Shown one piece after another: positions 10,318-46,800 of a stretch of DNA of 64,000 nucleotides. The DNA comes from Polytrichum commune (Eukaryota > Streptophyta > Polytrichopsida > Polytrichales > Polytrichaceae). The stretch covers positions 932,501-996,500 of the forward strand of contig OX485808.1 in assembly GCA_950295325.1 (NCBI GenBank), in the 5' to 3' direction. Both the position numbers and the translations under genes were made by a program. The stretch's first letter is position 1; each line of letters starts with the position of its first letter. The notes beneath the pieces are model-generated. The model was not told where the DNA came from, did no database searches, and worked only from the letters and a program-made list of their open reading frames with translations.

Positions 10318-11852
10318 TGTAGCAAGCTGGCTTTCGAACAGCACTTGCACAGAGCAAGCAATGTGTCGAAGATGAGGTACTGATCAGCAGGCTCTCTGAA
10401 AGTTTCGACGGAGATGTTTAAATACTGTGTCGACATCTGCGGGAGAGGACGATCCGCCGAGTCCACCTTTACAGTCCACGATCGGGTCCCACATATCCTG
10501 CAATTACAAATAGTAATATTCACCTGCAATCACCTCTGCTGATGGTTTCACATCAACTACTCTGGATGCGGTTGAGAACGTCGGCATACTTACCTTTCAA
10601 GACCACAGGGTAAATAGCAAGCGGCAACGGCGGTCGATTCTTCGTGGAAGCCGATTCACCTCCAAGCCCATAGCCACCATATCTTCTACATATTGGCATG
10701 GACGTACCAGGTGAGGCCAATCAACTAATGGTCTCTCAGAAGAATTGTGGAGTTTGGAATGTTGAACGGAGTCCGCAGAATCATACTTTCATGCTCAATA
10801 CAATTAAAATTTCGTTGCGGTGCTTAATTCGCATGAGTCACTCTCATGTCGACATTGCCATTAAGAATTTACTGGAGAACTTGAAGTTACTGGGTGGATC
10901 TAGTGCTTTCTCCGCAAAAACCGCGCGAGTTGAGGAATGGAACATTCTTTATCACTGCGGAGAGACAGAAGTTTCTTTCTGCAAACTTGTCTTCAGTTCA
11001 CACATTCCGGAGCTCACTCCTAGTTTCCCGTCGTTTTTAAATCGTCCTTCGAAGGTCATAAAATCGAAGGGTCAAACCATGATGATGATCCAAAACGTTA
11101 GGCCCCAAGCGTACCCGAGTGAACTCAAAATGCTGCTCTAAAGGTAAATACGTTCATTTTCTAGAATGTATGGTACTTAGTCTAATATTACAGTCATTGG
11201 AGGTTCGACTGAATTTAGTTTGATGACCAATGAATAACCTTATCATCCTCACATGAACTTCCTGCTGCAATGTAAACGGTTTTGGTAGTTATCGTGAAGT
11301 TACGCTAGCCTGATTTGCAGTTGATGGAAATAAGTGACACACGGTAAAGTCGAGCCACAAACAGTTACAGAGAAAACTCCTCTTCAACTGTCCGATCGTT
11401 GAATCGGACGTCTTAAAATAGAATTCAATTCCTCCATTGGTAAAAATAATATTCTCCTGGATAGAGCGTTAATTTATGAGTCAGCAGTGGCAAATTCATC
11501 ATTGATCTAAGGACCAGATGATTACAGATGCTAATCTGCCCTAACTAGTAGATTCGAAGTGGTTTTTATCTTCTCTCATGTGGAGGCTGCCAGGCTGCCT
11601 CCAACGTGCAGACATTTCCACCAGAGAAATAAAAGGAGAGGAAGCTCCCCAGCCAGCGTACTAACTCGAAGGACGACGTCACCTGCTAATAAATGCATGC
11701 CGACATATACCCTCAGCCGCCAGCATCGTCGATTGGTGTCGCTGCAGCGAAATTGATAGTCAAGTTTTGGTACCTGCGTGCGGAAGTTTTAGCGACCAAG
11801 GAACAACACCGGCGAGTTTCTTTAGTAAGTTTTGTGCAAATATTCTGTAGAG
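10318..11852. promoter_or_regulatory. Shared intergenic region of two divergent germin-like genes
   Basis: About 1.5 kb separate the two start codons. On the minus strand TATTTAAA (10417-10424) sits about 100 bases before the first gene. On the plus strand AATAAAAGG (about 11627-11635) lies about 220 bases before the second, and GACGTCAC (11675-11682), an ACGT-core site of the bZIP type, and ATGCATGC (about 11693-11700), an RY-like site, follow it. A 147-codon ORF at 10698-11141 has no recognised motif and is probably chance. Whether the region acts bidirectionally is unknown. Confidence 0.45.
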
Positions 11853-12515
11853 ATGGCGAGAGTTTTGATCGTAGCCTTCGCGGTTATTGTGCTCTTTGCC
11901 ACAGCTGCGTTCGGCAGCGATCCGGATACCATCAACGACTACTGCGTAGCTGATCTCAAAAGCTCAGTTATGTTCAATGGCTACCCGTGCAAGAGTGCGG
12001 ACATGGTGGTGACCTCCGACTTCTTGTTCACGGGGTTCCGGGGCATGGGAGCAGACACAAACAACTCTCTCGGCATCGGCCTTACTCCCGCATTTGCCTC
12101 AGTGAATTACCCGGGACTGAACGCACAAGGACTGGGGCTGGTTCGATTCGACTACTCAAGGGGCGGCCTCGTTCCTCCACACACGCATCCTAGAGCGTCC
12201 GAGGTTATTTATGTCACTCATGGCATGGTTTTTGTCGGCTTCGTGGACTCAGGAGGGAAGTTTTGGTCCGCTACCTTGACGGCTGGCGACGTGTTTTTGT
12301 TTCCCAGAGGTTTGGTGCACTTCCAGCTCAATGTTGGCAACGGGAAGGCCATGTCGATCTCCACCGTAAACGGCCAGAACCCCGGTGTCCAGTTGATTGC
12401 GTCCGCTCTCTTTGGTTCCACTCCTGCCATTAGGGACGATGTCCTAGCCAAGGGCTTTGGCATCAACAAGACAGATGTCCAGATGATCAAGAAGTCCTTC
12501 CAGCGCGCCATGTAA
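11853..12515 (+). CDS. Germin-like protein (cupin), 220 aa, intronless
   Basis: Close paralog of the gene at 9664-10317. Residues 1-21 form a signal peptide (VLIVAFAVIVLFATAAFG). Cys31 and Cys46 are the disulfide pair. Metal ligands are His110, His112, Glu117 (PPHTHPRASEVIY) and His156 (FPRGLVHFQLN). Two N-glycosylation sequons are visible, Asn70 (NNS) and Asn205 (NKT); neither is in the neighbour. The C-terminal helix region TDVQMIKKSFQ is conserved between the pair. The product is expected in the cell wall as a Mn-cupin oligomer, with enzymatic activity not predictable from sequence. The start at 11853 was preferred to 11832 because the signal peptide starts there. The divergent arrangement points to an old inverted duplication. 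Confidence 0.93.
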   Translation: MARVLIVAFAVIVLFATAAFGSDPDTINDYCVADLKSSVMFNGYPCKSADMVVTSDFLFTGFRGMGADTNNSLGIGLTPAFASVNYPGLNAQGLGLVRFDYSRGGLVPPHTHPRASEVIYVTHGMVFVGFVDSGGKFWSATLTAGDVFLFPRGLVHFQLNVGNGKAMSISTVNGQNPGVQLIASALFGSTPAIRDDVLAKGFGINKTDVQMIKKSFQRAM

Positions 12516-21640: not shown

Positions 21641-22800
21641 GAACAACCCAAAAACACATTCATGTTTATCGACAACCTCAACAATATATTCTTCATACCA
21701 CATAAGATACCCATCATCCCAACACAACCCCCATGACAAATTACTCAAACAATCATAATTCACCAAATCATTTGGACCAAACACACCATAACAATACAAA
21801 AAGAAGAAGCACATATCAACATTTCAAGGAACGAAGTAGCAGACCAACTCGCAACTGAAGGAACTACCGCAAGAAACCCACCCCCACACCCTACATACAT
21901 ACCACACACACACCCATACCCTACTGACTCAACGGAGTATAGTCCGGCAAACATACATAAACAAATTCCATCGAGTACAAGGACTCTAAATCGCGCCAAA
22001 CCAAATTCACGTACATTGACAAATGAGTCTCTGATGACCAAATTCGCCATAAACTATCAAACCACTTTTGGCAAGCCAATGGCATCTCATACATGCAAAT
22101 AACCCAAACACAAAAATGATGACACACCCAATACATGGGAAACCTCCGAAGAAACATCTTCTAGCCAACCACCCACCCAAACCCAAATTGTACAATGTGC
22201 CCAAACTGCGAAATTGAAACGTGGCCACACCTCCTATCCACATGTACAAACTCCCACATAAAAGGCCTACACATAGTCCGACATAACCAAGCCATCCACC
22301 AAATAGCTCACACACTCCAAACCAACAAATACAGAATATGCTACACTCTTGCCCCCAAGGCATCACTAATCCCATAATGACAGCTACAATGCACATGCCC
22401 TACTAACCCATGCAATTGCACAACTTGATTAAGCCCTGACATAATATGCATCCTTCATACCCCCAACGGATAGCCAACCACCCATAACCCTAACCTCACC
22501 TAACACTATACAACTCAGAGAATTCACTTATTGCCACAACAAATTCCCCAACATTGCCATAAGATAAAAACCCATTAAATATAACCCCCTCATCCAAACC
22601 CCATTAAACCCACTGCATGGAATGTCAAACCCCTTATCAGCATCACAACAAGAGTACGGGGTGCTATCCACAAACAATCCATAGAAGCACTAGAGAATCT
22701 AAAAACCCTAAAAGCAAAGTTAAACAAATTCACGAAACACATCCATCAAACTACCATCAAATACCTCACCTACTTATTAATTTAACAAAAGAAAACTAGA
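21641..22800 (+). pseudogene. Decayed LINE fragment: RNase H end, CCHC motif, RLE domain
   Basis: This segment is a second copy of the C-terminal half of the LINE at 32638-45322. Across shifting frames it reads FIDNLN, then AHINISRNEVADQLATEG (the RNase H end, matching AHANIDGNEQADKLAKEG), then CPNCEIETWPHLLSTC (the CCHC motif, matching CPICNSYEPDTWLHVLLTC), then IQLREFTYCHNKF and KYNPLI (the restriction-like endonuclease core, matching IQFIEFTYCNDKF and KYQPLI). Many frameshifts and stops show it is dead. Like the main copy, its coding strand is strikingly poor in G. A CA repeat (22838-22853) follows. Confidence 0.8.
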
Positions 22801-23665
22801 CAAAAGCTGAAAACCAATAGACCCTCCCTAACCCCACACACACACACACACACACCAAAACAAACAAACCATCAAAAAAAAAACAACAACAACAACCCTC
22901 TTTACTTATTACACATGTTACTCGCATGGAGCCCACCCTCCAAAAGGAAGGAAGTATTGCTACCTTGTCGCTTGGTAAAATATGATCCAGGCCAAGAAGA
23001 ACAGGCTCCCATTCACGTTGGTACAAATAAAAGTACGGATGTTAGTTTTTTATTAGTGTTCTCATGCCACACAAGGCTCTTTTTAGATGTCAGAGCCAAT
23101 ATGGTGATGACACGTGGTATCACTTTAAAATAGTTATTTAATTACAAGGAACATCATTATTGCCATCAATATGGCAATATAAAAATAAAATAAAAATCTC
23201 AAAATGACGTGTAGTGCCAACGTACAATTGACCAGTAAGGCTGCACTCAGGGTGTGAGAAAAGAGAAGGCAACTTCCCACAAAGGTCCAACAGCCACTCG
23301 CAAGGTGCCATGTGGCGGTCGGTTTGTCCACCTGTTATGGCCAAGAATGCATCCAACATGGTGACTAGGACACCAAAAATATAAACAATTTAAACCCACA
23401 GGTACCATAGTACTGTTGGGGGCATTAGCCCTCTCCCCAAAAGCTAAGAATTAAATAACAAAAAACTAATTCTTTGGGTTGCAAGGAATTTAAATATCAA
23501 ATTCAAGTGGAGCAAGTGGCAGCATGTAGTGAGTCGGGACGCTTTATAATACTAATGTAACATGTGGTATCTATTTTATTAGTTCCTTTGCTATCTCTAA
23601 TTTCAACTAGACTCTATTATATGCAAGACTAGAGTATTTTAATTCCAACTAGACTTTACTATGTG
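22801..23665. other. Gene-free region with CA repeat
   Basis: Begins with a CA dinucleotide tract and an AAC-rich tract. The rest shows overlapping short ORFs without motif. No gene is supported. Confidence 0.35.
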
Positions 23666-30683: not shown

Positions 30684-31796
30684 TGTGAGCCCAGAATCAC
30701 CCCCGCCTTTAATTGCGTATGAGTCCAGGCGGGGGATCCTCTGTCACACTCCTCTCCCGTATTGCGAAAATGTATCAACCCCCGTGAATGAGGCAATGAG
30801 ACACAACCCTGTCTCTTTATTAAACTCTCATAAACCCAAGTATTCATAAATACTTGTACCACAACATACATCAAGTAGGATCCTAATTAATTCCACATTC
30901 TCTAACCCCCAAGCCTAATTCTATGACTAACTACCTACTAACCCAACACTGGTCTACATGATAAACTCCTCTGTCCGCCAACAGTCCATGCCACTTCCCC
31001 TCCAGAGCTTATAACTGGCTGGGCTTCGGCCAACAACCTCACATTCTCCGAAATCCTTTGAGCTGCCGAGCTTTGGCCAACAACCTCACATTCTCTGAAT
31101 CGCCTTTGAGGTGCCTGGGCTTTGGCCAACAACCTCACATTCTCTAAATCCTTTTAAGTTGCCTGGGCTTCAGCCAGCAACCTCACATTCTCTAAATCCT
31201 TTTAAGTTGCCTGGGCTTCGGCCAACAACCTCACATTCTCTGAATCGCCTTTGAGCTGCCTGGGTTTCGGCCAGAAACCTCACATTCTCTGAATCCTTTT
31301 AAGTTGCCTGGGCTTTGGCCAGCAACCTCACATTCTCTGAAATCCTTTGAGCTCGCTCCTTGAGAACAACCAACCTCCCCCGAAGGGACCCCTCCTCCTT
31401 CTCCACTGTTCAGGCAACGGGGAATCCTACTTCGGCAGCATTTTTTCTCATTTCCCCCGCTTCCCTTGGTCTTCCACTGTATCCTTATCGTGTCTCTCCC
31501 CGAGAGGAGTTTTCTTCTCCTCATTCACCGTTCCCCCTGGCTTATCCATAAGCCCTGACCCCCTTTAAATGGACAGCAAAGGTCTTAATTCGAACATTAA
31601 AAACCTGCGTTTGACTCCTTGCCATAGGACTACCTAACCCTCCCCTAACCAATTAAATCAACACTAACTCAACTCAAGCCCCAAATCTAACACTTCACTC
31701 TTTTTATGTTTTCTTCACAATAAATAAAAGTCACGATCTAAGTCCTAATGATTTCTAAGGTTAACACACATGTGGGCACACGACTTTGGGCTCACA
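30684..31796. mobile_element. Solo LTR, 1113 bp, with CATTG target duplication
   Basis: Starts TGTGAGCCC and ends GGGCTCACA, a 9-base inverted end pair beginning TG and ending CA as LTRs do. CATTG lies on each side (30679-30683 and 31797-31801), and the host LTR reads on uninterrupted in the 3' LTR copy at about 47040-47050 (AGCATTGTTCGTATG). No internal region or coding sequence is present, as expected after LTR-LTR recombination. A relative lies at 26596-27816. Confidence 0.85.
31016..31350. repeat. Seven-copy minisatellite, 48-base unit
   Basis: Seven near-identical units, each containing GGCCAACAACCTCACATTCT followed by CTGAATCCTTT and a TTGCCTGGGCTT-like link, lie inside the solo LTR. 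The unit is a multiple of three, so open frames arise on the minus strand; these are not considered genes. Confidence 0.9.
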
Positions 31797-31866: not shown

Positions 31867-32637
31867 AATGTTATGGGTCCACGCATGCAAGTGAAGTGCA
31901 AAGACATTTGATTGCTTTGAGGTTGCAGAGTGGATCTTGAGGGGTTGGTGCTTTGGAATTTCGGAGCGTTGGAGATGTCTAAGGACACATTTGGTTGTTT
32001 TTTGCTTTTGCTTGAATGTATGTTTGATGCATGAGCATGTAACTTGATTGTCTTAAGTGTTGAGAGGTTTGTTTGAAAGGTTTGGAGGTGTTTAGACTTC
32101 AACAACAATTGACATTAGTGTTTTGAGTGTTTAAGGGCTTATTTGAGAGCGTTGAAGGTGTTTAGATTCCAAGAGCACATGACTTGAGAGGCTTGAATAT
32201 TGAGAAGGTTATTTTAAAGGTTTGAAGGTGTTTAGACTTCAAAACATACGACTAGAATAATTTGAATGGTTTAAGATTTATTTGTGAGGCTTGAGTATTG
32301 TAAGGTTGTTTGAAACCATTCAAGGTGTTTTGAATTTTTGAGTGCTTGAGGTGTACAAGATTTGACTTGAGGTATTTGAGAGTGTAAAACACATTTGACT
32401 TGAGTGATTGGAGAGTACAAAGGGCACATTTAAGAGAAAATGCATTCATTTGAATGAAATAAGATCTAACGAGTGATTAGAGAGTGCAATGGCCACATTT
32501 GAAAGAAAATGCATTCATTTGAGTGAAACGAATTATAACTTGAATGATTAAAACGTTGTAACACACATTTGAAAGCAAGTGGACTAATTCTAGGTGTGAG
32601 AGATTTGACTTGAGTGATTAGAATGTCTTTAGGCATT
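31867..32637 (+). repeat. Leader of the LTR element, TTGAG-rich degenerate repeats (left part)
   Basis: Degenerate repetition of phrases such as GACTTGAGTGATT, GGTGTTTAGACTTC and AACACATTTGA. It ends at the 12-bp sequence TCTTTAGGCATT (32626-32637) that is repeated after the LINE. The same phrasing resumes at 45335. Confidence 0.7.
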
Positions 32638-34740
32638 AAGTTGGTTTGCGAGTGTGGGAGGTGGGGGATGACTTGAGAGGTGAAGCCGGAACACTCTCGG
32701 CGAAGCCCTGACAGATCTGAGAAGGTGTTGGAGGTAAGGGGGGAAGTGCCAAGGTAGAAGTGGCTATCCTGCTGCTCCCGTAACTCTTCCCCCCCAGCCA
32801 CCCACCTCTTCAGATTTTGAAAGGGCACTGAGAGATGTGGCCACCGTAACAAGCCCCCCATAAAAGATCGTGATAATCAGTGCATCCACACTCTCCTCAT
32901 AGGCCCCCCCGACACCAGAAACGGTAGAACGAAGCAGCCGCTGCTGCACCTCGGAGATCTACTGCCGAGCCACCACCACATGACATCGCCACTACCACGG
33001 AACACATCAACATATCTGACCCTGCAATACGTAGCTGACTGGATTCTCAAACTGCTGCCACGCCGCCACTGGAGACATCTGCTTCAACGAGTAACAACTG
33101 CTGCTACTCACCACGGGAAGTTAGCCACCGAAGTAACCGCCCCGACGAAGCTGCCGCCCACACCTGAAGTCCCCTTGCAACCAAATCCACCACCGATACA
33201 GCTGCTGCTCGCCGGATACACGTAGCCGCCGAACTCGCCGGGACCTCGTAACCGCTACTACCTCAAAACACATTCTCCGAAGTCCCCTACAACTCGTAGC
33301 CGCTGCTGCCGTTGTCAATAAATCGGTGCTGCCATCGAAACACAGACTCCGAAGACCCCCACAACTCGTAGCCGCTGCTGCCGCCGTCGCCAACGTCCCT
33401 TCAAAACTACTGCCACTCCCGCAACCCACAGCCGCTGCTACCACCCAAACACAGGTTTAGAAGCGCCCCCGCAACTCGCAGCCGCTGCTGCCACCGGAGA
33501 TTGCAGATCCAAGCTCAGATCTGTACTCAGATCCAGGCTCATCGAACATTACATCTAAAATCCAGCACATTAGACTAGACTTACAAGACCCAGAGATTGC
33601 ACCGAGTGAACTCAGTCAAAGGATCCTGCGGGTGTCCACATCTAGCAGAAACATAGTCAAAATTTCTGTTGCAAGACATAGAAATCCTCAACAAAGGATA
33701 GTATGACTACAGATAGGAAAACCTTGAGAGATTACAACCCAGAGGAAGATTGGGACAAACTGCAGCCGGAGAGACTTTAGACCTGCGCTATCTACAAGCA
33801 CTGCTGAACGCCGAAGGAACTGCTAAAACCAAGGAGGAATTGCTTAAGCGAAAGGAGAGCCGTCACCAAAACCGAGAGCTTGTCGAAGCAGCGGGGAGCC
33901 CCAGAAGATGCCTCAACACTGTGCTCCAGAAGAGTGCTGGAAATTCTTGACAAACACACGACAGAGGGAGGAGTTCCGATTCGGAGATTTGCTGCTGGAA
34001 ATCAGAAGGCTGCAAACACGGCATTGCAGCAAGAAACAAACGGGAGTTGCGTGCTGTGCAGTTGGCAGACACCGGAGGATAATTGGATCGACACTATATT
34101 AGCCACAGAACTACTGCGAAGTTGTGCAGCACCGGAGCAGAAGTTGTAAAGACGTGAAGCTGCGGGACGTGAGAGGCCGCGAAGCTGTGGAACTGTACAG
34201 CTGATTACTCCTCAACCAACAAGGGATTCCAAGGTAAGATTTCTAAACCATCCATTGCACATAGACTTAGATGCACACACATAAGTAATAAGTAGTCACA
34301 TAGCAATTTTTTTTTGTCAAGATAGGAGGTAGTATGAAGGTTGCATATGCAACCATGTTTGCTTTTGTATTATGGCTCATAGTAGCCTCCTCATATTGGA
34401 AATCCTCTCACCGTGTCCCCTCTCACACTATTTGGATAGGATATTCAAGTTGTCGTTATGAAAACATACATGAACACAAACCAACACCAAAAGTAGTACC
34501 ACCATGTTTTTATGCCTCTCCATATTGGAACCTTATGTATCTCATCAAAACATCCACACCCCTAGATAACTTAACACATCAATACACTAATCTAGAAAAT
34601 GAAAAACCAAAATTGTTGCATGCTTGGATTATTAATAATTATTGTTCCAAAACCAATAAACGAAATAAGAGTAATTATATGTAAGACACTCAAAACACTT
34701 CTTCCCTAAAAACAATATCCAATTTGGCCCACAATTTAAT
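32638..34740 (+). promoter_or_regulatory. 5' region of the LINE, partly GC-rich with CCGCTGCTGCC repeats
   Basis: Between 32650 and 34230 base composition is much richer in GC than the surroundings. Four spaced copies of a core GCCGCTGCTGCC (about 33305, 33375, 33432, 33480), 50-70 bases apart, form an irregular minisatellite. LINE promoters usually lie in such 5' regions; function here is inferred. ORFs of 60-130 codons on both strands lack motifs. Confidence 0.4.
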
Positions 34741-36212
34741 TTGTGGAATGGATTTGGCATAGGGATGATAAGAAGTATGGACCTAGTTAACCCTCCACAA
34801 AAACTAAGCCACTCATTTGAACATTGTACTTGTCACAGAATGTCTACATCCACCAACGTTGCTGCCACCACTAGGAAACTATTTGAGCAAAATGTTGATA
34901 TGATAGATGCATTAGCAAACGGTAAAAAAAGACAAGTCGGTGCTATGATTGTGTCTAGCCAAAAGAAGGCAAAGGGCAAAGGAGTTGTATCCCCACGCCC
35001 CCCCCCCCTTTTGGTTAGGATATCATGCGATGAATGCAATTGCATGTGAAAATGGTGAAACATTAGAACCAACAGTCTCAGTTAGTGAACTTGTCAAATT
35101 TGGAATGGAACATGATGAGGCATTAGAACATCTAGAAGCGGTCCCCTCTTTCCCATACATCCCCCAAGAAGTTTGGCCTTCCAAAAGGATGGATGGTAAA
35201 GAAGGTGGGCACTTCAATCTCACTCAAGTCCCTTTCGATGTAGAAGTGGATGAAGGAGGGTTTTCTCTTGACTACCAAATAGCCATAACCTTTGAGCTTT
35301 GTGAACGAAACTTGTCAAGGGATGAAATACATGCAAAAACGGAAGCAAGGTTAAAAGCTATGAACATTGAACTAGGAGAAATCCTAGGAGAACCTATAGC
35401 TATCCTTTGCTTCCACGGCTCTAAGAGGTGGAATGGTATAATCAAACTCCACCTTAAGAACCCAATGATAAATGCCAATGATCTCCTTCATGGCAATAGG
35501 TCATTTATCCTCAAGTTGAATAATATAACCTATTGTAGAGGAAAGACATTCAAATCATTTGATTCCATAGCCATCGCAAGTCTGCTCTCGGTCAAAATCT
35601 CTAGCCCTACACTCAAAGATAGAAAATGGTTCCAATTGCATGAAGAGATTGTCAAAGATGGCTTCAAACGAGGGTATGAATTTGAAGTCACCAATGTGCA
35701 AAAGAATGATAGTGCTGAATTTGCATGGATAAAAATCCCATCTCCGGACCAAGCAAAGAAATTAAAAACCTTCAAAATTTCATTTTTCAATGAAATCATG
35801 GAAGTACACTTTGCTAGTATGGAGAAACTCTCCGAGTATGATAAGGTAAAAAAGAATGCAGTAGTATTGATTGCAAAAAACTTAAGCAAAACCAAAACCA
35901 CCGTCACCTTAGAGGAGGGGATAGAGAAACTCTTTGGAGAAAAAAAATGTGGCGGGCATTTTCTTCCGATTAGAAAAGGGGAAGCATGTGGGATCATGTA
36001 ACGTACAATGTTTTAATGCGGCAGTTTATAAGAAGTATGTAAAACAAAACCACCCAATTCTTGGTAAATACGTAGAATTTTCACCTCATTCCAGAAGTTT
36101 GGATGGAATTGATGCCCCCTCCGCAATAAAACTTGCTAGACTAGGCTTTGCTGATGTCAACACCACACTAGCCAACACGATTCAAGCCTTGGAGAATGCC
36201 CCATCAAAATGA
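34741..36212 (+). pseudogene. LINE ORF1 protein, broken by frameshifts
   Basis: Three frames join into one product of roughly 450-490 residues. The first frame (34741 or the better ATG at 34840) passes to the second at a C run (34999-35010), which stays open to 36001. The frame then changes at an A run (35939-35946) and reaches TGA at 36210-36212, after which open sequence continues (LSKMVEEAVSKGAVEIRKEM) with coiled-coil character. Two segments have the alternation expected of RRM-like folds (around AILCFHGSKRWNGIIKLHL and around FAWIKIPSPDQAKKLK). ORF1 proteins of LINEs bind RNA and form the ribonucleoprotein. I do not recognise a named family. Both frame changes are in homopolymers, so assembly error is possible. 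Confidence 0.6.
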
Positions 36213-36487
36213 TACACGAAGGCATATTTGAGCAAAATGGTAGAAGAGGCGGTAAGCAAAGGCGCAGTGGAAATTCGCAAAGAAATGAGCCTCCTAAAAA
36301 ATGAGATTATTGAAGAAGCAAAAGTATATGCAAACAAAGTTCAAGCTGAGTCAAACCAAAATTCAAAAATACAAATTGTACTCCTCCAAAAATAAATGCG
36401 CATCACCCTGGAAACCCTCCAAGCCGACCACCCCGACACCCCCGAAATTGAAAACCACATGGATGTGTCAAACTAGTTTTGACAAAT

Positions 36488-38094
36488 GTAGCGATGGAAA
36501 CACATATTATAACAAAAAATATATTTATATACACAACTTAATAAACAACAAAACAAATATTACAAAATACTATTAAATACTATACACAAAATATATAAAT
36601 ATCACACTAACAAAAATAAAATAAAAATAGTATCTATCGATACTCCAATAAAGCAACAAATAAACCAAATACAAAGTAAAACGAATGAATACTCCCACCC
36701 ACCTACATACATAGCAACAAGAAAACATAATGCAATAAAAATATATTTATATACAAAAAACAATAAAACCCAATACAAACATCATATAATATTAATAAAT
36801 ACTACACAAAAAATACACAAAAATACACAAAAAAATACATATTAAATACAAACAAAACAAACATAGTATTTATCAATACTATCTCAAAAAAACAAACAAA
36901 TAACTCACAAATTAAAATCAAAACTAAGGCACATATTGAACACATTAAAAATAACATACAAATAAACAACCAACCTCTAATACACAACAAAAAGAAACAC
37001 ACACAAACAAACACACACATAAAAACAAAAAAGCAATATACAACAAAAACCAAAATACTAAATATCAAACACCCCACAAAGCACCAAACAAAACACCAAA
37101 CGGCCTTGGCCTACGGGCCTCGCCACAAAATAAAACAAATAAAACACTCAAACTACCACAACTTCTATCACACATTTTTCAAAAATACAAAATTTATGCC
37201 AAAACAAACCAAACACACACACTACTTCCCCAAATATACACAAAAACCAATACATGCCCTATCCAACCTATTTACCACAAGTGTAGCGATGGAAATACAT
37301 ATTATAACAAAAATACATTTATATACACAAACCAAAAAATAACAAAGAAAAAATTACAGAGTATTATTAAATACTATACAAAAAATACATAAATACCGTA
37401 TCAACAAAAATAAAATAAAAATAGTATTTATTAATACTCCAACAAATAAGCAAACAAACAATATACAAGTTAGTACTCAATCAATATTTTTCTCCAAACA
37501 CATCAAAAGCAATCAACAAACAAAGAAAATACAACTAAACAAACAAACCAAACTCATCTTAGCCTACAAGCAAATTTACACTAAGACAAAAAGACAAAAC
37601 ATAGTCAAAACATCATACCACATATACAAATTGATAAATAAAATAGCAAGCAAAACCAAATACCAAATATCAAACCATTCTCCTAACTTGTGGGAGAAAG
37701 AACATTACACATCAAACCACGCACAACACCAACTTACACACCTCAACCTTAACCTACACCTTGCACAATCCCCTATAATACGGCACACAAAGCACCAAAT
37801 GGGCTCGGCCTACCGGCCTCGCCACAAAACCAAACAAATAAGATACTCACGTTACTATATCTTTCAACAAGCCTTTAACACAATCACACGGCCCATACAC
37901 AAACAAACCAAATTCACATACTACCTCCCTCACCACAAAACTAAACACAAAAGATACCCACACTACCACTTTTTTCACCAACCACATAATACAATAACAA
38001 GGCCTATATACAAACAACCTAAATTCACTCATTATCCCCTCAAACTCCCTCAAAAAATAATAATACATGCCTTACCTAATCTATTTACCACAAG
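36488..38094 (+). repeat. Tandem duplication of a 0.8-kb unit between ORF1 and ORF2
   Basis: Unit 1 starts at 36488 and unit 2 at 37283 (795 bases apart), both with GTAGCGATGGAAA then ACATATTATAACAAAAA. Both end with CTATTTACCACAAG (37268-37281 and 38081-38094). Each contains GGCCT(C/T)GGCCTAC.GGCCTCG with CCACAAAA following (about 37102 and 37803). Unit 2 has a further internal duplication of about 110 bases (37825-38045). The units are A- and C-rich, nearly without G. Confidence 0.8.
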
Positions 38095-38122
38095 TAAATA
38101 CACACTAATAAAATACTACAAA

Positions 38123-38626
38123 ATGAACAAAAGAAAACCAAAAATCAAACAATACCAAGGATATCACTTCATTCATCAATTAGCACTATTACAATGTGGA
38201 GACATTGAACCTCACCCTGGACCGATGCCAAATATATTGTATAGACATCCAACAACACACAAAAAAATAGCCAACACCTACTTCATCCCTAACACAATAA
38301 AATTATACCCAGAATACCAACACCTTGCTAATTCATTTGCCCCTATACTAAAACATGAACACCCTCTACATCCACAAGCAATCCTAACATTCTCACATTT
38401 ATATCAATACACGCAAACACAAAACCACTCACCCCTATCCCACATACTATATGCCATTATTATAATCATAAACCCCTCAATAAACACTTGCAATAATATA
38501 TTAGCTCAACCCAACACCTACCACTTCAACATAGAATGGACTAATACACTAATCATCAAACTGGCTAACCTTACCAACCCCCAGAAAGACATATCCATAC
38601 ACAACACCCATACACTAAATTCATAG
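38123..38626 (+). CDS. N-terminal part of LINE ORF2 with 2A-like peptide
   Basis: The frame is open from 37631, but the ATG at 38123 is a plausible start because the earlier part is repeat-derived. The product begins MNKRKPKIKQ and reaches LALLQCGDIEPHPGP, with the 2A-like core at 38198-38224 (residues 26-34). The consensus of 2A peptides is D(V/I)ExNPGP; here the Asn is His. 2A peptides make ribosomes skip a peptide bond before the final Pro, and many non-LTR retrotransposons carry one at their N-terminus. Downstream is a linker rich in His, Thr and Pro. The frame then shifts near 38590, and the APE domain follows in another frame. Confidence 0.6.
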   Translation: MNKRKPKIKQYQGYHFIHQLALLQCGDIEPHPGPMPNILYRHPTTHKKIANTYFIPNTIKLYPEYQHLANSFAPILKHEHPLHPQAILTFSHLYQYTQTQNHSPLSHILYAIIIIINPSINTCNNILAQPNTYHFNIEWTNTLIIKLANLTNPQKDISIHNTHTLNS

Positions 38627-39615
38627 AAAACCACCAAGACATAATAGTACCTCCAAACTCAATACATCAAGAATTATACACTTTCATACATAGCCATGAA
38701 TCACCTCCAACCCTTACCACACTCCAAAGAAAACTTCCCTTCTTACCAATCAAATTATTAAACGAATATTCTCACCCACCCCCACTTCTAAATATACCCA
38801 CTCAAACAACTAGAATAAACACCAACACTAATCATGAAACAAACATAATAACTTGGAATGCATCATCACTGAATACAACCTTGCCTAACTTACAAAGCCT
38901 CGTTACCTACACACAAACAAATACAGCAACCATTATCATCCAGGAAACTAAATTCACAGCAACCATATCCACGAAATATATTAAAAATTTATTCCCACAA
39001 TACAAACTCGTATTTAACAACACACATGCACTCACTAGATGCATTCAACAACGAATGCCTTATACACCAGGAAGGGGCGGATTGCTTACTCTTATAAACA
39101 ACAAATATGCCTTCCCTGGTAATATCACCAAAATTCCCACACCGGCTAGTATTTCGCCATATCTTCAAATAATATGAATAAACAACCAACCATTAAAACC
39201 ATGGTTAATTATTCACATGTATATGCCTACACACATAGAAGACCTACACCTCATTCCCAACATAAAAACTACAATCACTAATCAAATTACTGTACACCCC
39301 GATCATATTTACACCTTATGCGGAGACTTTAACCGCGACATTGCACTTATTGGTAGACAAAATAACAGTTCTAATTCACCGCCACAAGAAGAAGACATAC
39401 ACTAGAAAACCTTTACTGCATCCCTAAATCTTGAATACATCCCAACAAACACCACATTCTCAAGACAAGGCGGTAACAACTATACATCTACCAGCTTGAT
39501 AGATGAATTCTACATCAACTCACCATATAATAACACATACTCTTCTACAACAAACACCTACATGGACCTAACTCAGACCACTATCCAATCACCCTCCACA
39601 TACCACATAACACAT
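38600..39615 (+). pseudogene. APE-type endonuclease domain of the LINE
   Basis: Apurinic/apyrimidinic-like endonuclease fold, which nicks target DNA to prime reverse transcription. Visible catalytic motifs: WNASSLN (38850-38875), the Glu of IIIQETKF (38944-38946), GDFNRD (39322-39339), and SDHYPI (39573-39590). The frame is open from about 38590 to TGA at 39175-39177, continues to TAG at 39403-39405, then carries on until a frame change near 39560. Both stops lie where a Trp would suit the domain. The GGLLTLI and SLIDEFYIN segments support the assignment. Confidence 0.8.
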
Positions 39616-39912
39616 CAATAGCAAGACCCAAACCCTCCAACAACATTACACAAAATAAAATCCTAAACCCGATACCACCTGAAAACCTTGAAATTTTAAT
39701 ATAAAATTCTTTGAAGAGAACTCCACACAAATCCACGACTTAAACACCCTCCTTGAAAATCATGATCATCTCACGAACACCCAATGGTAATACGCGTGTG
39801 ACACACTAGACAACATAATAAGAAAAATTTCACAAAACATAGAAGAAACATGTAGTACAGCTCCAATACCACCAACCACCAACATGTACAAATCCCCAAC
39901 CTACCTACAACA

Positions 39913-42369
39913 AACACCTCACTGAACGTATGGATAGAGGAAATAGCAATCATTGCAAAAACCGCCAAGATTCAAGCTATAAACATTACCACAAAATATA
40001 CTAAAGAATGTATACTAAAAGCAATATCAAAATATAGAACACTATATGAAAAAAGTCCTAAGAAAATAAACAAGAAAGTCTTCAGAAACTCTGAAACCTC
40101 ACCCCTAGATTCTATCATAGATAGACAAAACAACATCCTAACTAGTCCTGAAGATATAGCAAAAGAAATATACACACAACAATCCATTAGTAATCGTCCC
40201 ACAGTCCCTACCTGTGCCCATCAAACAAACCATTTACAACACTGTACGTGTAGCGTACGACAATACCCGTGGCACGACCTTGACGGCCTCACCATAGACC
40301 GACGCGGAGAACCTCAAATTCCACTCCACACATACTTCGATTCAGAAACATATGACCTATGTCTAAAAAACCTTGGTAACAACAAAGCCCCTGGCCCAGA
40401 TAAAATTCTCAATTCAATATTAAAAAACATACCACCACGCTTTCACAGACTACTATTCCTATTCTTCAAACACTGCTATAAACAAAAACAAATCCTTGCA
40501 TCATGGAAAATGAGCCTAACGGTCCTACTCTATAAGAAAGGTAACCCATCACAACTCACAAATCATAGACCTATTGCTTTAGCTAATACCATATATAAAT
40601 TTTACACAAGTACTCTGACATCCATCCTCTCGGCCTACGGAGAAATATACCAAATACTACATGATAGCCAAGAAGAATTCAGAGCAGAAAGAGGAACTTC
40701 CAGACAACTCCAAATACTAATTGCTGCACTGGAAGATGCAAGATTCACAAAACATGACATATACATTCTATACATAGACTTTAAAAATGTTTTTGGCTCT
40801 ATAGACCACGCTAGACTTCTAGCAATAATGAAAGACCTTGGATACCCAGATGATGCCATAAACCTAATCAGAAATATATATTCGCAATCTACGACCACAT
40901 TTATAGGAGAACACTTTGGCAAAACACAACCTATCCCCATTCAAAGGGGAACAATACAAGGAGACACCCTAAGCCCATATATATTCATCATATTCTTAGA
41001 ACCTCTTCTAAGATGATTACAATAGGAAAATAATGGCTACACATTCGGAACATCCAAAGTAAAAATTTCCTCAGCAGCGTACGCCGATGACCTAGCAACA
41101 ATAGCAAACAAATTGAAATCGCTACAAATACAACTCAACAAACTTGACATATTTTGTGAATGAGCGGGCATGGATCTTGGAATCCCCAAGTGTGCAATTA
41201 CGGGATGCCCAAACAAATCCAAAATGAGCCCCTTAGCTTTTAAAAACCAAATTCAAGCGACTAATATTAACTACGGAAACGAACCTATACCAGTTTTGAG
41301 TCAAAATGAACCATACACATATTTAGGAATAAACCTTGCCCCCTCACTAAAATGGAAAACACAAATACACACCACTACCACCAAAGTTATAAAACAATGC
41401 AAAGATCTTGCAGCCTGTCCAGCTACTATGAAACAAAAAATCAATATGGCGGACACACTTATACGCGCCGGAATTGCATACAGTTTCTATGCGGTACCAT
41501 ACTCCCTACCTGCCATCAAAAAACTTGACAAAAAAATTATAGCCCTCCACAAAACAATATGTGGACTACCAAAATCCACGTCAAACATAACTACACAACT
41601 TCCTCATAACTTATTCGGCATAGAGGCCTTCTCATTCAAAAATGCCTACTTACGATGTATAGGAGAACAACTACAACATGCCCTCAATGACACAGGCAGA
41701 CTAGGAAAAATCTATAAAGGATTGCTTCAATTTATACTAGCAACATTTGGTGGCGCCGAAGAGATACCTCGTATCAAATATCACCACTGTGTCCGCTCAC
41801 CTATAACTATAACACTATTCCTACTCAACAAAGAAGCAGGAGTTCACCTAAAGAGCACAATAAACAATTTCATGTTTAACACCTCTCCACTTGAAAATGA
41901 TTGGATGAAAGAAGCGCGAAACTTACACAGCCTGAATCATAAAACATCGCTTAAATTATTACAAAAATTACTACTACACAACATAATTGAACTAGGGCAA
42001 ATCACTCTACCCAATGGCCTCAACATGATGTGCCCGAACGATTTTAAAAACTATTATTCCAACCCTACCAAACTCATCAAAAATGCACTAAACATTGCTC
42101 AACAACTATTATGTCACCCCCAATGCCCCCCTCAATGTCAACAACCATGCCCGCACCACTACCTACCCAGAACCCTAAAAGAAAACTACATAATAATAAA
42201 TCATAACATTCTCCCTAGACAACCTGAGCCGCCACTACACCCCCCCCAAACCCACCCCACCCACATCACCCACCCCCACCAAGAGATGTGCTTAAAAACC
42301 CTAGGCAATTCCCTATTCACACCATCCTTGACCATAAAAAACGGCAATACACTAACTCCAATGGAATAA
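39913..42369 (+). pseudogene. LINE reverse transcriptase domain
   Basis: Non-LTR reverse transcriptase. The frame is open from 39913 to 42369 apart from three stops close together (TGA 41014, TAG 41023, TGA 41161). Recognised blocks: NKAPGPDKILN (block 0/1), VLLYKKGNPSQLTNHRPIAL, the catalytic Asp in YIDFKNVFGSIDH (GAC at 40777), QRGTIQGDTLSPYIF, and AYADDLA (YADD at 41080-41091). The thumb region continues through LNLAPSLKWKTQ-like sequence and further helices. First TGA and third TGA again fall where Trp is common in LINE RTs. The end passes by a frameshift near 42355 to the next ORF. Confidence 0.88.
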
Positions 42370-42448
42370 TGAAAATAACACATCATATCTATGCCAATGG
42401 ATAATAAACAACCATAACACCTATAATAAATGGCTAACCCAAAGAGAC

Positions 42449-43489
42449 ATGTTCCCTTGGTACGAAGCTAACACATGTGCACACAACTCTGGACTACTAA
42501 CACAATACTATACTGAAAAACAACATAAACACTACTCAAACTTAATAAACGCTCACTTTGCCACAGAACAACAACGAGATACGAGATATGTCACCCCCGC
42601 AACAAATATCCCAATGGCACATATCTCTATCCATGAGTGTAACCCCGAAAATGACATAGAAACCTCCACAAATACTATCCAAATGCATTTTGATGTTGCC
42701 AACATGTATGAGGACAAGGGACGGCACCTCATTGCCATTCCCAAAACCAGACTACACTGGCTCTGGAAACAATACCAACTCGCACAAAATACCCCACATG
42801 GGTTAGAACCACCTACACAACCATTCGAAACTGAAATAGTATGGCTATACCAAAGGTACAAGTACCGGATCCCAAAAAATGACCCACTAAAACTAGCCCA
42901 ATACACATTACCAACTCCAATATTAAATTTTCTCATCACATCATTCAACATTAGCCATCCATACTTCTCATCCCCAGTCACATGCCCTACACAACTTAAT
43001 AGATTTTACTCTCCATTCGCAAGAGATAAAATATTTGGATCATTAGGGAAAGCCTTCGACCACAAATGGAATGGAATAGGCTTTGCCCACCCCAACAACG
43101 CTACAGACCTACTACAGGCTACACATTGGGCCCGTCTTGCTGCCAAAGATGACCCAAGCAACATCACAATAATCATCTCACCTGACATAAATTGGTACCA
43201 AAACTTCAACCCATACTCGGGCCCATTCCCAGATACACATATTATCGCTCACTTTGCGGCAGATACAATCACATACGAAGAACCTACTATACCACCTGAA
43301 CTTAATATACCTAGGAAAAAACTCTCCACACTACAAATACTCTGCATACACCACCAAAATAACCACATAGGCACCTATGAACAGCTAAATCAACTCACCC
43401 ATATTGCAAATAACCTCTCAATAACACAACTATACACACAAATTGCCATGCACACCCCCCCCCCCCCCGAATACTCCTGTCAACCCTAA
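42449..43489 (+). CDS. LINE ORF2 middle: unidentified domain between RT and RNase H
   Basis: An uninterrupted 346-codon frame; open sequence extends upstream in the same frame to about 42358. The last 150 residues include RFYSPFARDKIFGSLGKAF, KWNGIGFAHPNN, ITIIISPDINWYQNF and FPDTHIIAHFAADTITYEEP. This spacing (start block, W.G..xxP, hydrophobic strand ending in P, then a closing strand block) recalls the layout of phage-type DNA N6-adenine methyltransferases, where AHPN would stand in place of NPPY. That likeness is weak, and a catalytic role is doubtful because the canonical motif is missing. It passes into the RNase H frame at a C run (43455-43468). Confidence 0.5.
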   Translation: MFPWYEANTCAHNSGLLTQYYTEKQHKHYSNLINAHFATEQQRDTRYVTPATNIPMAHISIHECNPENDIETSTNTIQMHFDVANMYEDKGRHLIAIPKTRLHWLWKQYQLAQNTPHGLEPPTQPFETEIVWLYQRYKYRIPKNDPLKLAQYTLPTPILNFLITSFNISHPYFSSPVTCPTQLNRFYSPFARDKIFGSLGKAFDHKWNGIGFAHPNNATDLLQATHWARLAAKDDPSNITIIISPDINWYQNFNPYSGPFPDTHIIAHFAADTITYEEPTIPPELNIPRKKLSTLQILCIHHQNNHIGTYEQLNQLTHIANNLSITQLYTQIAMHTPPPPEYSCQP

Positions 43490-45065
43490 CAAAAAGTGGT
43501 CCAAATTAACTTACCCCGATACCCCCATACTCAATGTATCACCTATACCTCAACTACCGGACTACCAAACTAACTTACCATTGAAATACCATCCACAATT
43601 TAGTTATTACACCGATGGCTCATTCAAAGAACCCAAACTAATCTCTACCGGAGTATGGAGGAAAGAAATGGCAAGATATGGTATCTATAGCCCTAGAGGA
43701 CTAAGTATAGCCGGAAGGCTATATGGACACCAGAATATCCTCATAGCAGAAATGATGGCTATACATAAAACATTGCGAATTATCAACGACCAATATCCAA
43801 ATGAGCCCGCATATATATTCACCGATAGCCTCAATGTCCTATACCTACTAAACACACAAATCAAACACCCCACACTACACAATAGTCACCCAGACCAAGT
43901 CACACTTGCCTCCATGGTAAAATTACTCCAAAAACGCTCTCAACCAACTACATTACACAAAGTTAGAGCACATGCCAACATAGACGGCAACGAACAAGCA
44001 GACAAATTAGCAAAAGAAGGACTGGACCTTACCCATAGAAATGCCATACACCCACACGAACACGCTCATGCCACACCTTACTACTATCAAAAAGACAAAT
44101 GGCCTTCCATGATAGACACGCTAGACAAGGGCCCAGTCAGATTCCTAGAAAAACAAATCAAAAAATATGACAGAACAAACAACTTAGAAAACATGGCCGC
44201 ACAAGCCCCTAATATTTGGAAATGGATAGGCAATGAACACATTGACAAGGAAATTTCTAACGAATTCTGGAATAACCTTACTATTACAGACAAACAGAAG
44301 TCATGTCTTATCAAATTCCGTACAGGAACTTACATGGGCCAAGCCAGAAAACAACTTTTCTTTGGTAGACAAAGATTCCCCACCATCACCTGTCCCATCT
44401 GTAACTCATACGAACCTGACACATGGCTACATGTACTACTCACATGTAGGCAACAACATATTCACTCTCTACACATAAAAAGACATAACAAAGCAATATG
44501 GGAAATAAGGAAATTACTAATCTCATCCGAAAAATCCCGATGCTACACCCTTATGAACGCTGGCACCTTTAATGACAACCCCCAAGAAAACACTGTCCCT
44601 AGCTGGTTATTACCCTGCACATGTGGAACCCAAAGATGTCACTGCAACTCCCGTTTTAAACCCGACATTCTTTGCGTTAAAGGACTACCATATCAAAATA
44701 CACCCCCCACAAATGTAGACCAAACAATTACCATACAATTCATTGAATTCACATACTGTAATGATAAATTTTCACCAGCAACCCTAGAAGCCAAAACTAA
44801 CAAATACCAACCGCTGATAGAAAGCATTGCTGCCCTAGGTTGGAAAACAAACCCGCTTATTGTTATTACAGCAGGCGCCAGAGCCGCAACACACATCCCA
44901 TCAATGAAACTATTGGAAGACAAATTTAAAATACCTATGTCATCCATCCGAAATACCTTCAAAAACATTAATACCATTGCGATACAATACGCCATGTCCA
45001 TCTTGCTCCACAAAAGAAGACTTGAAAATCACCAACCTCTACCTCAAATACAAGACCCCCCCTAA
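43443..45065 (+). CDS. LINE ORF2 C-terminal part: RNase H, CCHC motif, restriction-like endonuclease
   Basis: 540 open codons. RNase H: YYTDGSF (Asp at 43614), AEMMAIH (Glu at 43749), FTDSLN (Asp at 43824) and ADKLAKEG (Asp at 44001), a full catalytic set. Next a zinc motif C-x2-C-x9-H-x4-C starting at 44391 (CPICNSYEPDTWLHVLLTC). Then a PD-(D/E)xK-like domain: RFKPDILCV (PD at 44661-44666), IEFTYCND (Glu at 44745-44747) and EAKTNKY (Lys near 44793). A CCHC followed by such a nuclease is the C-terminal arrangement of R2-type restriction-like-endonuclease LINEs. The true start is upstream in another frame; the ATG at 43443 is not the biological start. The second copy at 21641-22800 preserves the same motifs. 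Confidence 0.85.
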   Translation: MPCTPPPPPNTPVNPNKKWSKLTYPDTPILNVSPIPQLPDYQTNLPLKYHPQFSYYTDGSFKEPKLISTGVWRKEMARYGIYSPRGLSIAGRLYGHQNILIAEMMAIHKTLRIINDQYPNEPAYIFTDSLNVLYLLNTQIKHPTLHNSHPDQVTLASMVKLLQKRSQPTTLHKVRAHANIDGNEQADKLAKEGLDLTHRNAIHPHEHAHATPYYYQKDKWPSMIDTLDKGPVRFLEKQIKKYDRTNNLENMAAQAPNIWKWIGNEHIDKEISNEFWNNLTITDKQKSCLIKFRTGTYMGQARKQLFFGRQRFPTITCPICNSYEPDTWLHVLLTCRQQHIHSLHIKRHNKAIWEIRKLLISSEKSRCYTLMNAGTFNDNPQENTVPSWLLPCTCGTQRCHCNSRFKPDILCVKGLPYQNTPPTNVDQTITIQFIEFTYCNDKFSPATLEAKTNKYQPLIESIAALGWKTNPLIVITAGARAATHIPSMKLLEDKFKIPMSSIRNTFKNINTIAIQYAMSILLHKRRLENHQPLPQIQDPP

Positions 45066-45322
45066 ACTCCCTAGATCAAACTAAACAAAACAAACCCTAT
45101 ATTAAACCATCCCTTGGGTATAGTCTCCCTTTGTGTCATAAACCAATATTGGTTACTGGCTCTTATTTGTTACTGGTTACTTGTGACTATAGTGTCTACT
45201 CTCGAAAGGGGGAAGTAGTTCCTCACTTCTACTCCTATGTCCCGTGGACATAGGTTTAGGGGTGGAACGAACAGACACTTCGTTCACGTCGGTCCCCCTG
45301 GGGATCGAAGTTTCTTCTCTTC
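45066..45322 (+). other. LINE 3' UTR with consecutive hairpins, no poly-A tail
   Basis: Three stems follow one another: 45234-45254 (9 perfect pairs, loop CGT), 45265-45285 (GAACGAA with TTCGTTC, loop of 7) and 45291-45306 (GGTCCC with GGGATC, one G-T pair). The element ends in a pyrimidine-rich TTTCTTCTCTTC directly before the target duplication. Structured 3' UTRs without poly-A serve as recognition sites for their own reverse transcriptase in R2-like LINEs; that role here is inferred. Confidence 0.6.
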
Positions 45323-45334
45323 TCTTTAGGCATT

Positions 45335-46054: not shown

Positions 46055-46800
46055 ATGGCATGTCTTGAGAGTGAAGGGATTAGAGTCGTAGACAAGTTTC
46101 ACGGGGAGAAATTTAGCCTTTGGAAATTCAAAATGGAGATGGTTTTGGCTTTCATGGACCTTTGGGACATTATAGATGGATCCTAGAAAGCTCCACCTTC
46201 TAGTATGAATCCCAAAGTGTTGAAAGAGTACCAAAGGCGCGTCAAGAAATCCATGTTTATCATCGGCTTCAACTTAGTGAACAACCAACTTGCCCACATC
46301 AAGAGTTACAAAGGACCAACAAAGGTGAGGAAGATCCTTTGCAACATTCACGCGACGAAGAGTTTGTCCGACATCATTTTTGTTCGTTGCTAGTTTTTTT
46401 TGTGCAAGATGTAAGAGGGCGAAGACTTATTGGACTACACCAACAAGATCAAAGAGTTTGTAAATCAACTCAAGTGTTTGAAAGTAGCCCCACATGAAGA
46501 AGACATCGTCATGACTTTGCTCGAAAGCTTGCCGACGTTATGTAAATACTTGATCATTGCCTTGGAGAAGATGCCAATGAAGGGAATTGACGATGGAGTA
46601 TATGACAATATAACCGATCTACAAGATGTCGAAATACAAAGAGAAGAAACCCCAAGACTAAAATATGGCGATGGTGTTGCATCAAAGCAAAGCGAGTGAT
46701 CCACCTTCGCGCCAAGGTGTAAGGACATGCTTCTATTGCGGCAAACCGGGCCACATTGCGTGATTTTGCTACAAAGCAAATACTCAGTATATAGGGTTGA
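46055..46800 (+). pseudogene. Ty1/copia-type gag (UBN2-like) with CCHC zinc knuckle, broken
   Basis: Gag of an LTR element, the coat protein of the particle. It reads FHGEKFSLWKFKMEMVLAF and MDLWDIIDGS, then after TAG at 46183-46185 KVLKEYQRRVKKSMFIIGFN, then another stop near 46391, then LDYTNKIKEFVNQLKCLKV and EEDIVMTLLESLP, typical of the UBN2 domain. A CFYCGKPGHIA knuckle (C-x2-C-x4-H-x4-C, with TGA inside) follows at 46731-46775 after a frame change. The sequence then runs straight to a purine tract and the 3' LTR without any protease, integrase or RT. Confidence 0.85.

What the first reader, a model, noticed from the sequence alone, without database searches (positions are those of the whole stretch)
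32638..45322. A land-plant LINE with both APE and restriction-like endonucleases, bounded by a 12-bp target duplication
One element holds APE motifs (ETK, GDFN, SDH), a YADD reverse transcriptase, RNase H with four catalytic acids, a CCHC motif and a PD...E...K nuclease. LINEs normally have either APE or RLE; Dualen/RandI from Chlamydomonas is the known exception. The 12-bp duplication TCTTTAGGCATT, with the host's leader repeats on both outer sides, shows it is one insertion and not a chance assembly of fragments. Its size (12.7 kb), RNase H between RT and RLE, and the extra domain may set it apart from described elements.
Basis: partly seen in the sequence, partly recalled or inferred. Interest (0 to 1): 0.9.

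Follow-up and report, generated by a model that had tools for sequence, protein, structure and literature searches.

The report
Plant LINE with two DNA-cutting enzymes
This is a copy of a young jumping-gene family in a plant-like genome that carries two different DNA-cutting domains and also a domain related to an mRNA-cap methylating enzyme, a combination that could help show how the two great branches of these elements are related.

Summary
32638-45322 is one non-LTR retrotransposon insertion: 12-bp duplication, no poly(A), and an empty site in a paralogous host repeat. The window copy is broken, but its family is young: three fetched copies have an unbroken 2625-codon ORF2 and differ by under 1.5% of residues. 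ORF2 order is leader with a 2A-like motif, APE, RT, PCIF1-type domain, RNase H, CCHC, restriction-like endonuclease (RLE). Each named domain is under purifying selection (dN/dS about 0.06-0.11 in the four nearer comparisons). APE, PCIF1-type and RNH-RLE matches recur through the 408-Mb genome at fixed spacing. Its catalytic NPPF is replaced by AHPxN, so it probably no longer works as a standard methyltransferase. A structured 3' end with compensatory base changes precedes a short tandem-repeat tail. Closest known kind: Dualen/RandI dual-endonuclease LINEs of green algae and cryptophytes. Membership by RT phylogeny could not be tested, fold predictions failed, RLE and APE rest on motifs and weak-to-moderate profile matches, and the host is land-plant-like but unnamed. 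I rate it a new variant of a known kind.

The parts
32626..32637 (.). left copy of 12-bp target site duplication TCTTTAGGCATT
   Evidence: empty site in paralogous repeat
45323..45334 (.). right copy of target site duplication (first 2 bp ambiguous with the tail)
32638..45322 (+). the whole retrotransposon copy (12,685 bp)
34334..36476 (+). broken ORF1; unbroken in L024-L026 (747-codon open frame); no Pfam family
36477..38122 (+). inter-ORF region with degenerate repeats; the matching part of the ORF2 frame in other copies shows little coding constraint
38123..38224 (+). ORF2 leader ending in a 2A-like motif (GDIEPHPGP here at 38198-38224; GDIEPNPGP in L024, GDIESNPGP in L015)
38839..39600 (+). 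APE endonuclease region (WNASS, QETK, CGDFN, SDHYP), broken by stops and a frameshift in this copy
   Evidence: family:
40340..41390 (+). reverse transcriptase (YADD at 41080-41091; Pfam match itself 40537-41013; outer limits approximate)
42806..43123 (+). PCIF1-type domain (PF12237); AHPNN at 43085-43099 in place of the NPPF of PCIF1
43602..44024 (+). RNase H domain (PF00075)
44391..44447 (+). CCHC zinc-knuckle, CX2CX9HX4C
44481..45062 (+). restriction-like endonuclease: RHN 44481-44489, PD 44661-44666, E 44745-44747, KX2KY 44793-44807
   Evidence: motif definition from PMC5678591
45187..45313 (+). conserved 3' RNA structure (42 pairs, 10 with double changes)
45314..45322 (+). end of the 3' terminus and (TTCTC)n tail

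Best explanation
This is a broken copy of a LINE family, active now or very recently, of the dual-endonuclease (Dualen/RandI-like) kind. ORF2 is one polyprotein: a short leader ending in a 2A-like ribosome-skipping motif, then APE, RT, a PCIF1-derived domain, RNase H, a CCHC knuckle and an R2-type RLE. [quoted passage not shown] Shown: domain order, selection on each domain, duplications, 5' truncations, covarying 3' RNA, empty site. Inferred: that the 3' RNA is what the enzyme recognises, that both nucleases cut (probably one per strand), that the 2A motif works, and that the PCIF1-type domain, lacking NPPF, has become an RNA/cap-binding module rather than a standard methyltransferase.
For: Order and unity: P0001 (unbroken ORF2 of L024) has RVT_1 2.6e-29, PCIF1_WW 3e-10, RNase_H 5e-13. 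Window and copies are collinear with it. APE supported. Recurrence: 51 of 123 APE places have a PF12237 place downstream, 47 of them at 3.0-3.4 kb, against 1 upstream and 0 on the other strand; 34 of 123 have an RNH-RLE place, median 3.85 kb (lists are truncated by the tool, so lower bounds). Selection (L024 against L017, L015, L023, L022, and L011 for APE): APE 0.09-0.11, RT 0.07-0.08, PCIF1 0.07-0.10, RNH 0.07-0.10, CCHC-RLE 0.06-0.07. Youth: 21-33 residue differences in 2625. PCIF1: 9 of 9 members match PF12237; all 150 scored places of 697 candidates pass Pfam's cut-off. RLE: R2-type motif series; 21 of 21 copies keep RHN and the E, 20 of 21 PD and KX2KY, 19 of 21 the first CCHC cysteines. 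3' RNA: 98.4% of cells paired against 37-50% when slid, 10 pairs with double changes, 0 of 500 shuffles reach four of the five measures. Duplications: 11 of 21 copies with 9-14 bp next to tail and 5' end. RT best with R2.
Against: No fold confirmation: AlphaFold pLDDT 39.8 and 35. The RLE profile found no R2 chain in PDB, and hhalign against R2 RLE gave probability 4.9% (P 0.008), though in the right register. PCIF1 in PDB is only E 0.06-0.1. APE: no Pfam hit on whole P0001, PDB profile only E 0.28, family hits below curated cut-offs for the first member. The CCHC spacing X9 is outside the published X7-8, and the GXW motif named in the same paper was not seen at the aligned place. AHPxN was found in 18 of 21 copies (missing: L012, which starts downstream of it, L016, L021). 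R2Bm and L1 score almost alike with the RT profile. One covariation measure, further pair types, was reached by 369 of 500 shuffles. Duplications were not found, or could not be tested, in 10 of 21 copies. Many dS values exceed 1, so ratios are rough.
Confidence: 0.85

Rival explanations
1. The C-terminal RLE or the APE is a vestige: only one nuclease cuts, the other is kept for binding.
For: No activity data; weak profile statistics for the RLE. One copy with an unbroken ORF2 (L025) misses my KX2KY pattern.
Against: Catalytic-type residues and low dN/dS in both.
Confidence: 0.25
2. The PCIF1-type domain is still a methyltransferase, with AHPxN as a working variant of NPPF, and methylates the element's own RNA cap.
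For: Strong constraint; some copies keep both prolines (HPPN in L037, L038).
Against: First N and last F of NPPF are both replaced in the nine sequences of three subfamilies compared; changing NPPF lowers PCIF1 activity (PMC6318281, passages read).
Confidence: 0.15
3. An ordinary plant L1 or RTE element with extra sequence captured by chance in one copy.
For: Plant LINEs are reviewed as L1 and RTE only (PMC9033089, passages); RNase H is known in plant L1 (PMC4640811, passage).
Against: Fixed order in many copies, no poly(A), RT profile best with R2, RLE at the C-terminus.
Confidence: 0.03
4. A composite of unrelated fragments in the assembly.
For: The window copy has several frames and stops.
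Against: Single open frame in three fetched copies, empty site.
Confidence: 0.01

Closest known systems
Dualen/RandI group (Chlamydomonas and relatives; LINE/Dualen also named in cryptophytes)
   Same: APE and RLE in one element (PMC3636483, PMC4640811, passages), with RT and RNase H; short tandem-repeat 3' tails (RandI (ATT)n, (CTATTT)n in PMC3747384, table passage).
   Different: PF12237 domain; 2A-like motif; 12.7 kb; different host lineage; no protease family found by Pfam (protease recalled as reported for Dualen). Whether algal Dualen carry PF12237 or a 2A-like motif could not be checked.
R2 and other RLE LINEs
   Same: RT best match in PDB; CCHC then RH, PD, D/E, KX2KY order.
   Different: Has APE, RNase H, ORF1; the flanks of the 21 copies look unrelated to a common target.
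Plant L1
   Same: Two ORFs, APE, RT, RNase H.
   Different: No poly(A), has RLE and PCIF1-type domain.
PCIF1/CAPAM cap m6Am methyltransferase
   Same: PF12237 above cut-off; shared LP, SP.C, FGS.G pattern aligned to 6irx (E 0.063).
   Different: NPPF replaced by AHPxN; embedded in a LINE polyprotein.

Membership tests
Dualen/RandI | APE domain upstream of RT | tested here: met
   recurrence
Dualen/RandI | C-terminal RLE (CCHC, RH, PD, D/E, KX2KY) | tested here: met
   by motifs and conservation; profile support weak; fold not obtained
Dualen/RandI | RNase H domain | tested here: met
Dualen/RandI | RT groups with Dualen between RLE and APE LINEs | not testable with these tools
   no Dualen, L1 or RTE sequence set; only a PDB ranking
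Dualen/RandI | cysteine protease domain (recalled from the 2005 abstract; paper not held) | tested here: inconclusive
   none by Pfam in ORF1 or ORF2; not clear that it defines the group
R2 | no APE, one ORF | tested here: not met
   APE and ORF1 present
R2 | rDNA-specific insertion | tested here: inconclusive
   flanks of the 21 copies differ by eye; no formal test, no rDNA search
L1 | poly(A) 3' end and APE as only nuclease | tested here: not met
   tails of TTCTC-like or TATC repeats; RLE present
PCIF1 methyltransferase | PF12237 homology | tested here: met
PCIF1 methyltransferase | catalytic NPPF motif | tested here: not met
   AHPxN invariant in nine sequences of 3 subfamilies; pattern in 18 of 21 copies

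The most novel reading that the evidence does not exclude
A large, still mobile superfamily of dual-endonuclease LINEs in a plant lineage that absorbed a PCIF1-type cap methyltransferase, lost its NPPF chemistry and kept it under selection as a cap or 5'-end RNA-binding part of the retrotransposition machine: a living form close to the branch point of RLE and APE LINEs, with a division of labour between two nucleases.
Probability: 0.4. Interest if true: 0.85.

Novelty: new variant of a known kind. Interest (0 to 1): 0.73.

Why it matters
LINEs normally have one kind of nuclease, and how APE LINEs arose from RLE LINEs is argued partly from Dualen of algae (PMC4640811, passage). A young family in which both nucleases are conserved makes it testable which nuclease cuts which strand. 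A cap-methyltransferase-derived domain in a LINE, kept but without its catalytic motif, would be a new kind of part for a retrotransposon, and it suggests that the 5' cap of the RNA matters for completing an insertion. If the host is a plant, it would also extend plant LINEs beyond L1 and RTE.

Tried and rejected
Structure prediction of PCIF1-RNH-RLE (876 aa, 17 rows) and of APE (421 aa, 11 rows) gave models too poor to search; no fold search was run. RLE profile against PDB found only a terpene synthase at E 1.5. Relatives in viral contigs: none by three scans. Rfam: nothing in L024 and L029. A tRNA-like stretch that I thought I saw in the 3' UTR of L024 was not confirmed by ARAGORN. For L028 the 11-bp repeat first seen far upstream was dropped; its 5' end lies elsewhere, and an 11-bp repeat at that true break was found later. 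In one search the 3' ends of L024-L028 were set wrongly; redid them (there the end of L013 was set wrongly, so for L013 stands). Copies without a duplication: L027, L013, L014, L016, L020 (tested at a break, none), L009 (none), L010, L011, L021, L022 (no usable 5' break in hand). One motif pattern (YADD) was wrongly written and scored 0 of 21; it is not used. A first RLE pattern missed R2Bm and was widened; both are post hoc. One search used 57 of 150 PCIF1 rows; one search used all 150 and gave the same 30 of 79. The dN/dS of nearly identical copies (L024-L025) is uninformative. The 3' RNA model also gave hits of similar score (21.9-23.5 bits) on the opposite strand of known 3' ends, so its two weak window hits count only with the protein matches beside them. 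Papers: PCIF1 or a methyltransferase with retroelements and Dualen in plants showed no paper on a land-plant Dualen or a PCIF1-bearing LINE in the listings seen. Several listings were capped, some listed papers (such as PMC7824862) were not opened, and the library is open-licence only.
Full report
What is there. The window lies at G000:C6:932501-996500 of a 408-Mb genome in 64 contigs, so the rest of the genome could be searched. The element spans 32638-45322. TCTTTAGGCATT flanks it on both sides. Joined at one copy of those 12 bp, the window flanks align without a gap at the junction to a host repeat next to another copy (L028; 577 columns, 78% identity). That is an empty site, so the element is one insertion.

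The window copy is broken: ORF2 runs through shifts and stops in several frames. The RNH-RLE part has at least 79 matches in the genome (79 of 6326 candidates were scored). I fetched 20 of them, not at random: those nearest the window copy and those with long open frames. Three (L024, L025, L026) have one open frame of 2625 codons and differ from each other by 21-33 residues. Other places show open frames of 2663-2924 codons but were not read.

Anatomy of ORF2 (P0001). Coding constraint starts near residue 251: dN/dS is 0.13 for 251-300 in three comparisons and 0.31-0.96 upstream. This is where a leader ends in GDIEPNPGP (GDIESNPGP in L015), the form of a 2A-like motif (motif recalled; no call names it). 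APE motifs are at 502-750. NCBIfam xth matches 9 of 11 members of the APE alignment at E up to 1 (best 3e-5), PF14529 matches 4 of 11 (best 1.1e-6) and PF03372 4 of 11 (best 1.4e-5) at E up to 10; the first member lies below the curated cut-offs shown. On the whole P0001 Pfam gave no APE hit, but NCBIfam gave xth at E 0.0048. RT: PF00078 E 2.6e-29. A family profile ranks R2 chains first (2e-32 and 5e-29), with R2Bm (1e-17) hardly ahead of L1 ORF2p (2e-16); with the single protein L1 did not appear at E up to 1. RNase H: E 5e-13. Then CPIC...H...C, RHN, PD, E and KX2KY.

Published work on RLE LINEs gives the catalytic lysine as the first K of KX2KY, names an RH at the first helix and puts the CCHC before the nuclease (PMC5678591, passages read). 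This element has that series; 21 of 21 copies keep RHN and the E, 20 of 21 keep PD and KX2KY, and 19 of 21 match the first CCHC cysteines. Against this, its CCHC has X9 where X7-8 is published, the RLE profile found no R2 chain in PDB, and hhalign gave probability 4.9%, P 0.008, in the expected register. The fold was not obtained.

The extra domain. 42806-43123 matches PF12237 (PCIF1_WW) at E 1.6e-9. P0001 matches at 3e-10, and 9 of 9 members match. In the genome 150 of 697 candidates were scored and all 150 pass Pfam's cut-off; the same search rang in 0 of 14 control genomes, which the answer does not name. The best PDB match of the domain is PCIF1, weakly (E 0.063; 0.099). The alignment sets AHPNN against the NPPF of PCIF1. 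In nine sequences of three subfamilies A, H, P and the final N are invariant; the middle residue is P, H or N. The pattern was found in 18 of 21 copies, missing in L012 (which starts downstream of it), L016 and L021. NPPF is needed for full PCIF1 activity (PMC6318281, passages). I therefore infer a retained fold with changed or lost chemistry.

Selection and order. dN/dS is low in every named domain. For L024 against L017, L015, L023 and L022 (and L011 for APE) the ranges are: APE 0.09-0.11, RT 0.07-0.08, PCIF1 0.07-0.10, RNase H 0.07-0.10, CCHC-RLE 0.06-0.07; the stretches between them 0.09-0.16. Comparisons with the more distant L038 and L039 give 0.06-0.49, with saturated dS in places; comparisons with the decayed window copy give 0.06-0.18. 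So both nucleases and the PCIF1-type domain are kept. Of 123 APE places, 51 have a PF12237 place downstream on the same strand, 47 of them at 3.0-3.4 kb; controls gave 1 upstream and 0 on the opposite strand. 34 of 123 have an RNH-RLE place downstream (median 3.85 kb), 68 have either, 17 both; 30 of 79 RLE places have PF12237 directly upstream. The lists are cut by the tool, so these are lower bounds, and RT was not located genome-wide. Among the 21 copies read (window included) 12 show the first two APE motifs (9 of 21 GDFN, 11 of 21 SDH by pattern); the other nine begin downstream of these motifs, as expected of 5'-truncated LINEs, and five of those nine have a duplication at the break (L012, L017, L018, L019, L028).

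Ends and mechanism. In the 21 copies the 3' end is AGTTTC or AGTTTT followed by TTCTC-like or TATC repeats, not poly(A). The last 127 nt fold into 42 pairs, 10 with changes on both sides: 98.4% of cells pair, 37-50% when the partners are slid. None of 500 shuffles reach four of the five measures; the fifth, further pair types, is reached by 369 of 500 (the structure was derived from the same alignment, which favours it). A model of this RNA also gives weak hits at two places in the window (22924-23044, E 0.001; 20019-19947 minus, E 0.017), each beside a diverged RLE protein match of 30% and 34% identity. Hits of similar score on the opposite strand of known 3' ends show that such scores alone mean little. 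Duplications of 9-14 bp next to tail and 5' end were found in 11 of 21 copies: window 12, L024 12, L025 12, L026 12, L015 13, L012 14, L017 9, L018 12, L019 10, L023 11, L028 11. The L024 start lies about 2 kb beyond the first homology to the other copies, so it is the least certain. Flanks differ between copies by eye; two of 21 copies, the window's and L028, lie in the same host repeat, and no formal test of preference was made. Together this is target-primed reverse transcription. Which nuclease makes which cut is open; one per strand is my preferred inference.

ORF1. L024-L026 have a 747-codon frame overlapping the ORF2 open frame by 22 nt. Its start MKVAYATYLVLIMWLVLA looks like a hydrophobic leader (my reading). 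In one comparison (L024 with L015) three windows from codon 209 on give 0.20-0.38 and one is saturated, while codons 15-208 give 0.80. No Pfam family.

Relation to known kinds. Dualen/RandI encodes both nucleases (PMC3636483 and PMC4640811, passages), occurs in Chlamydomonas and relatives (PMC8226300, passages) and is named in cryptophyte repeat annotation (PMC12747079, passage). RandI 3' tails are short repeats (PMC3747384, table passage). A 2022 review lists L1 and RTE as the plant LINEs (PMC9033089, passages). The founding 2005 paper is not held; its cysteine protease is recalled. I therefore call this Dualen-like and leave formal membership open.

Host. Two cupin genes that read as germin-like proteins (9664-10350 minus, 11832-12515 plus) and long contigs (six of 42-78 Mb, C4 at least 54 Mb) suit a land plant. 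That is not proof, and a test with a land-plant family did not complete.

Noticed in passing
window 22030-23044 (+): Diverged 3' piece of another RLE LINE: 29.6% identity to P0001 2348-2611 (E 1e-22), with CCHC and RHN readable, followed by a weak match to the same 3' RNA model.
   Followed up: partly
window 20426-19947 (-): Second diverged RLE piece (34% identity, E 8e-16) ending in a weak match to the 3' RNA model (E 0.017).
   Followed up: partly
L012:5301-5189 (-): Match to the 3' RNA model (32.6 bits) with tail TTCTTCTTCTTC and no ORF2 protein match on that strand in L012: possibly a non-autonomous partner or a diverged family.
   Followed up: no
L030:3853-4697: A further RLE copy with its 3' RNA structure lies just upstream of copy L025.
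   Followed up: no
window flanks and flanks of L028: Two of 21 copies (window, L028) are inserted in the same host repeat; whether that is preference or just an abundant repeat is open.
   Followed up: no
ORF1 of L024-L026, window 34334 onward: ORF1 begins with a hydrophobic stretch, like a signal or membrane anchor, shared by L024, L015 and the window, although codons 15-208 show little constraint (dN/dS 0.80).
   Followed up: partly
window 36477-38122: Inter-ORF region with several degenerate direct repeats between the ORF1 stop and the constrained start of ORF2.
   Followed up: partly
window 46415-46696: Fragment of a copia-type gag (PF14223) just outside the element.
   Followed up: no
window 9664-10350 (-) and 11832-12515 (+): Two cupin genes (PF00190) that read as germin-like proteins; the best hint to a land-plant host.
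   Followed up: partly
window 31019-31353: Tandem array of a 48-bp unit (6.8 copies) upstream of the element.
   Followed up: no
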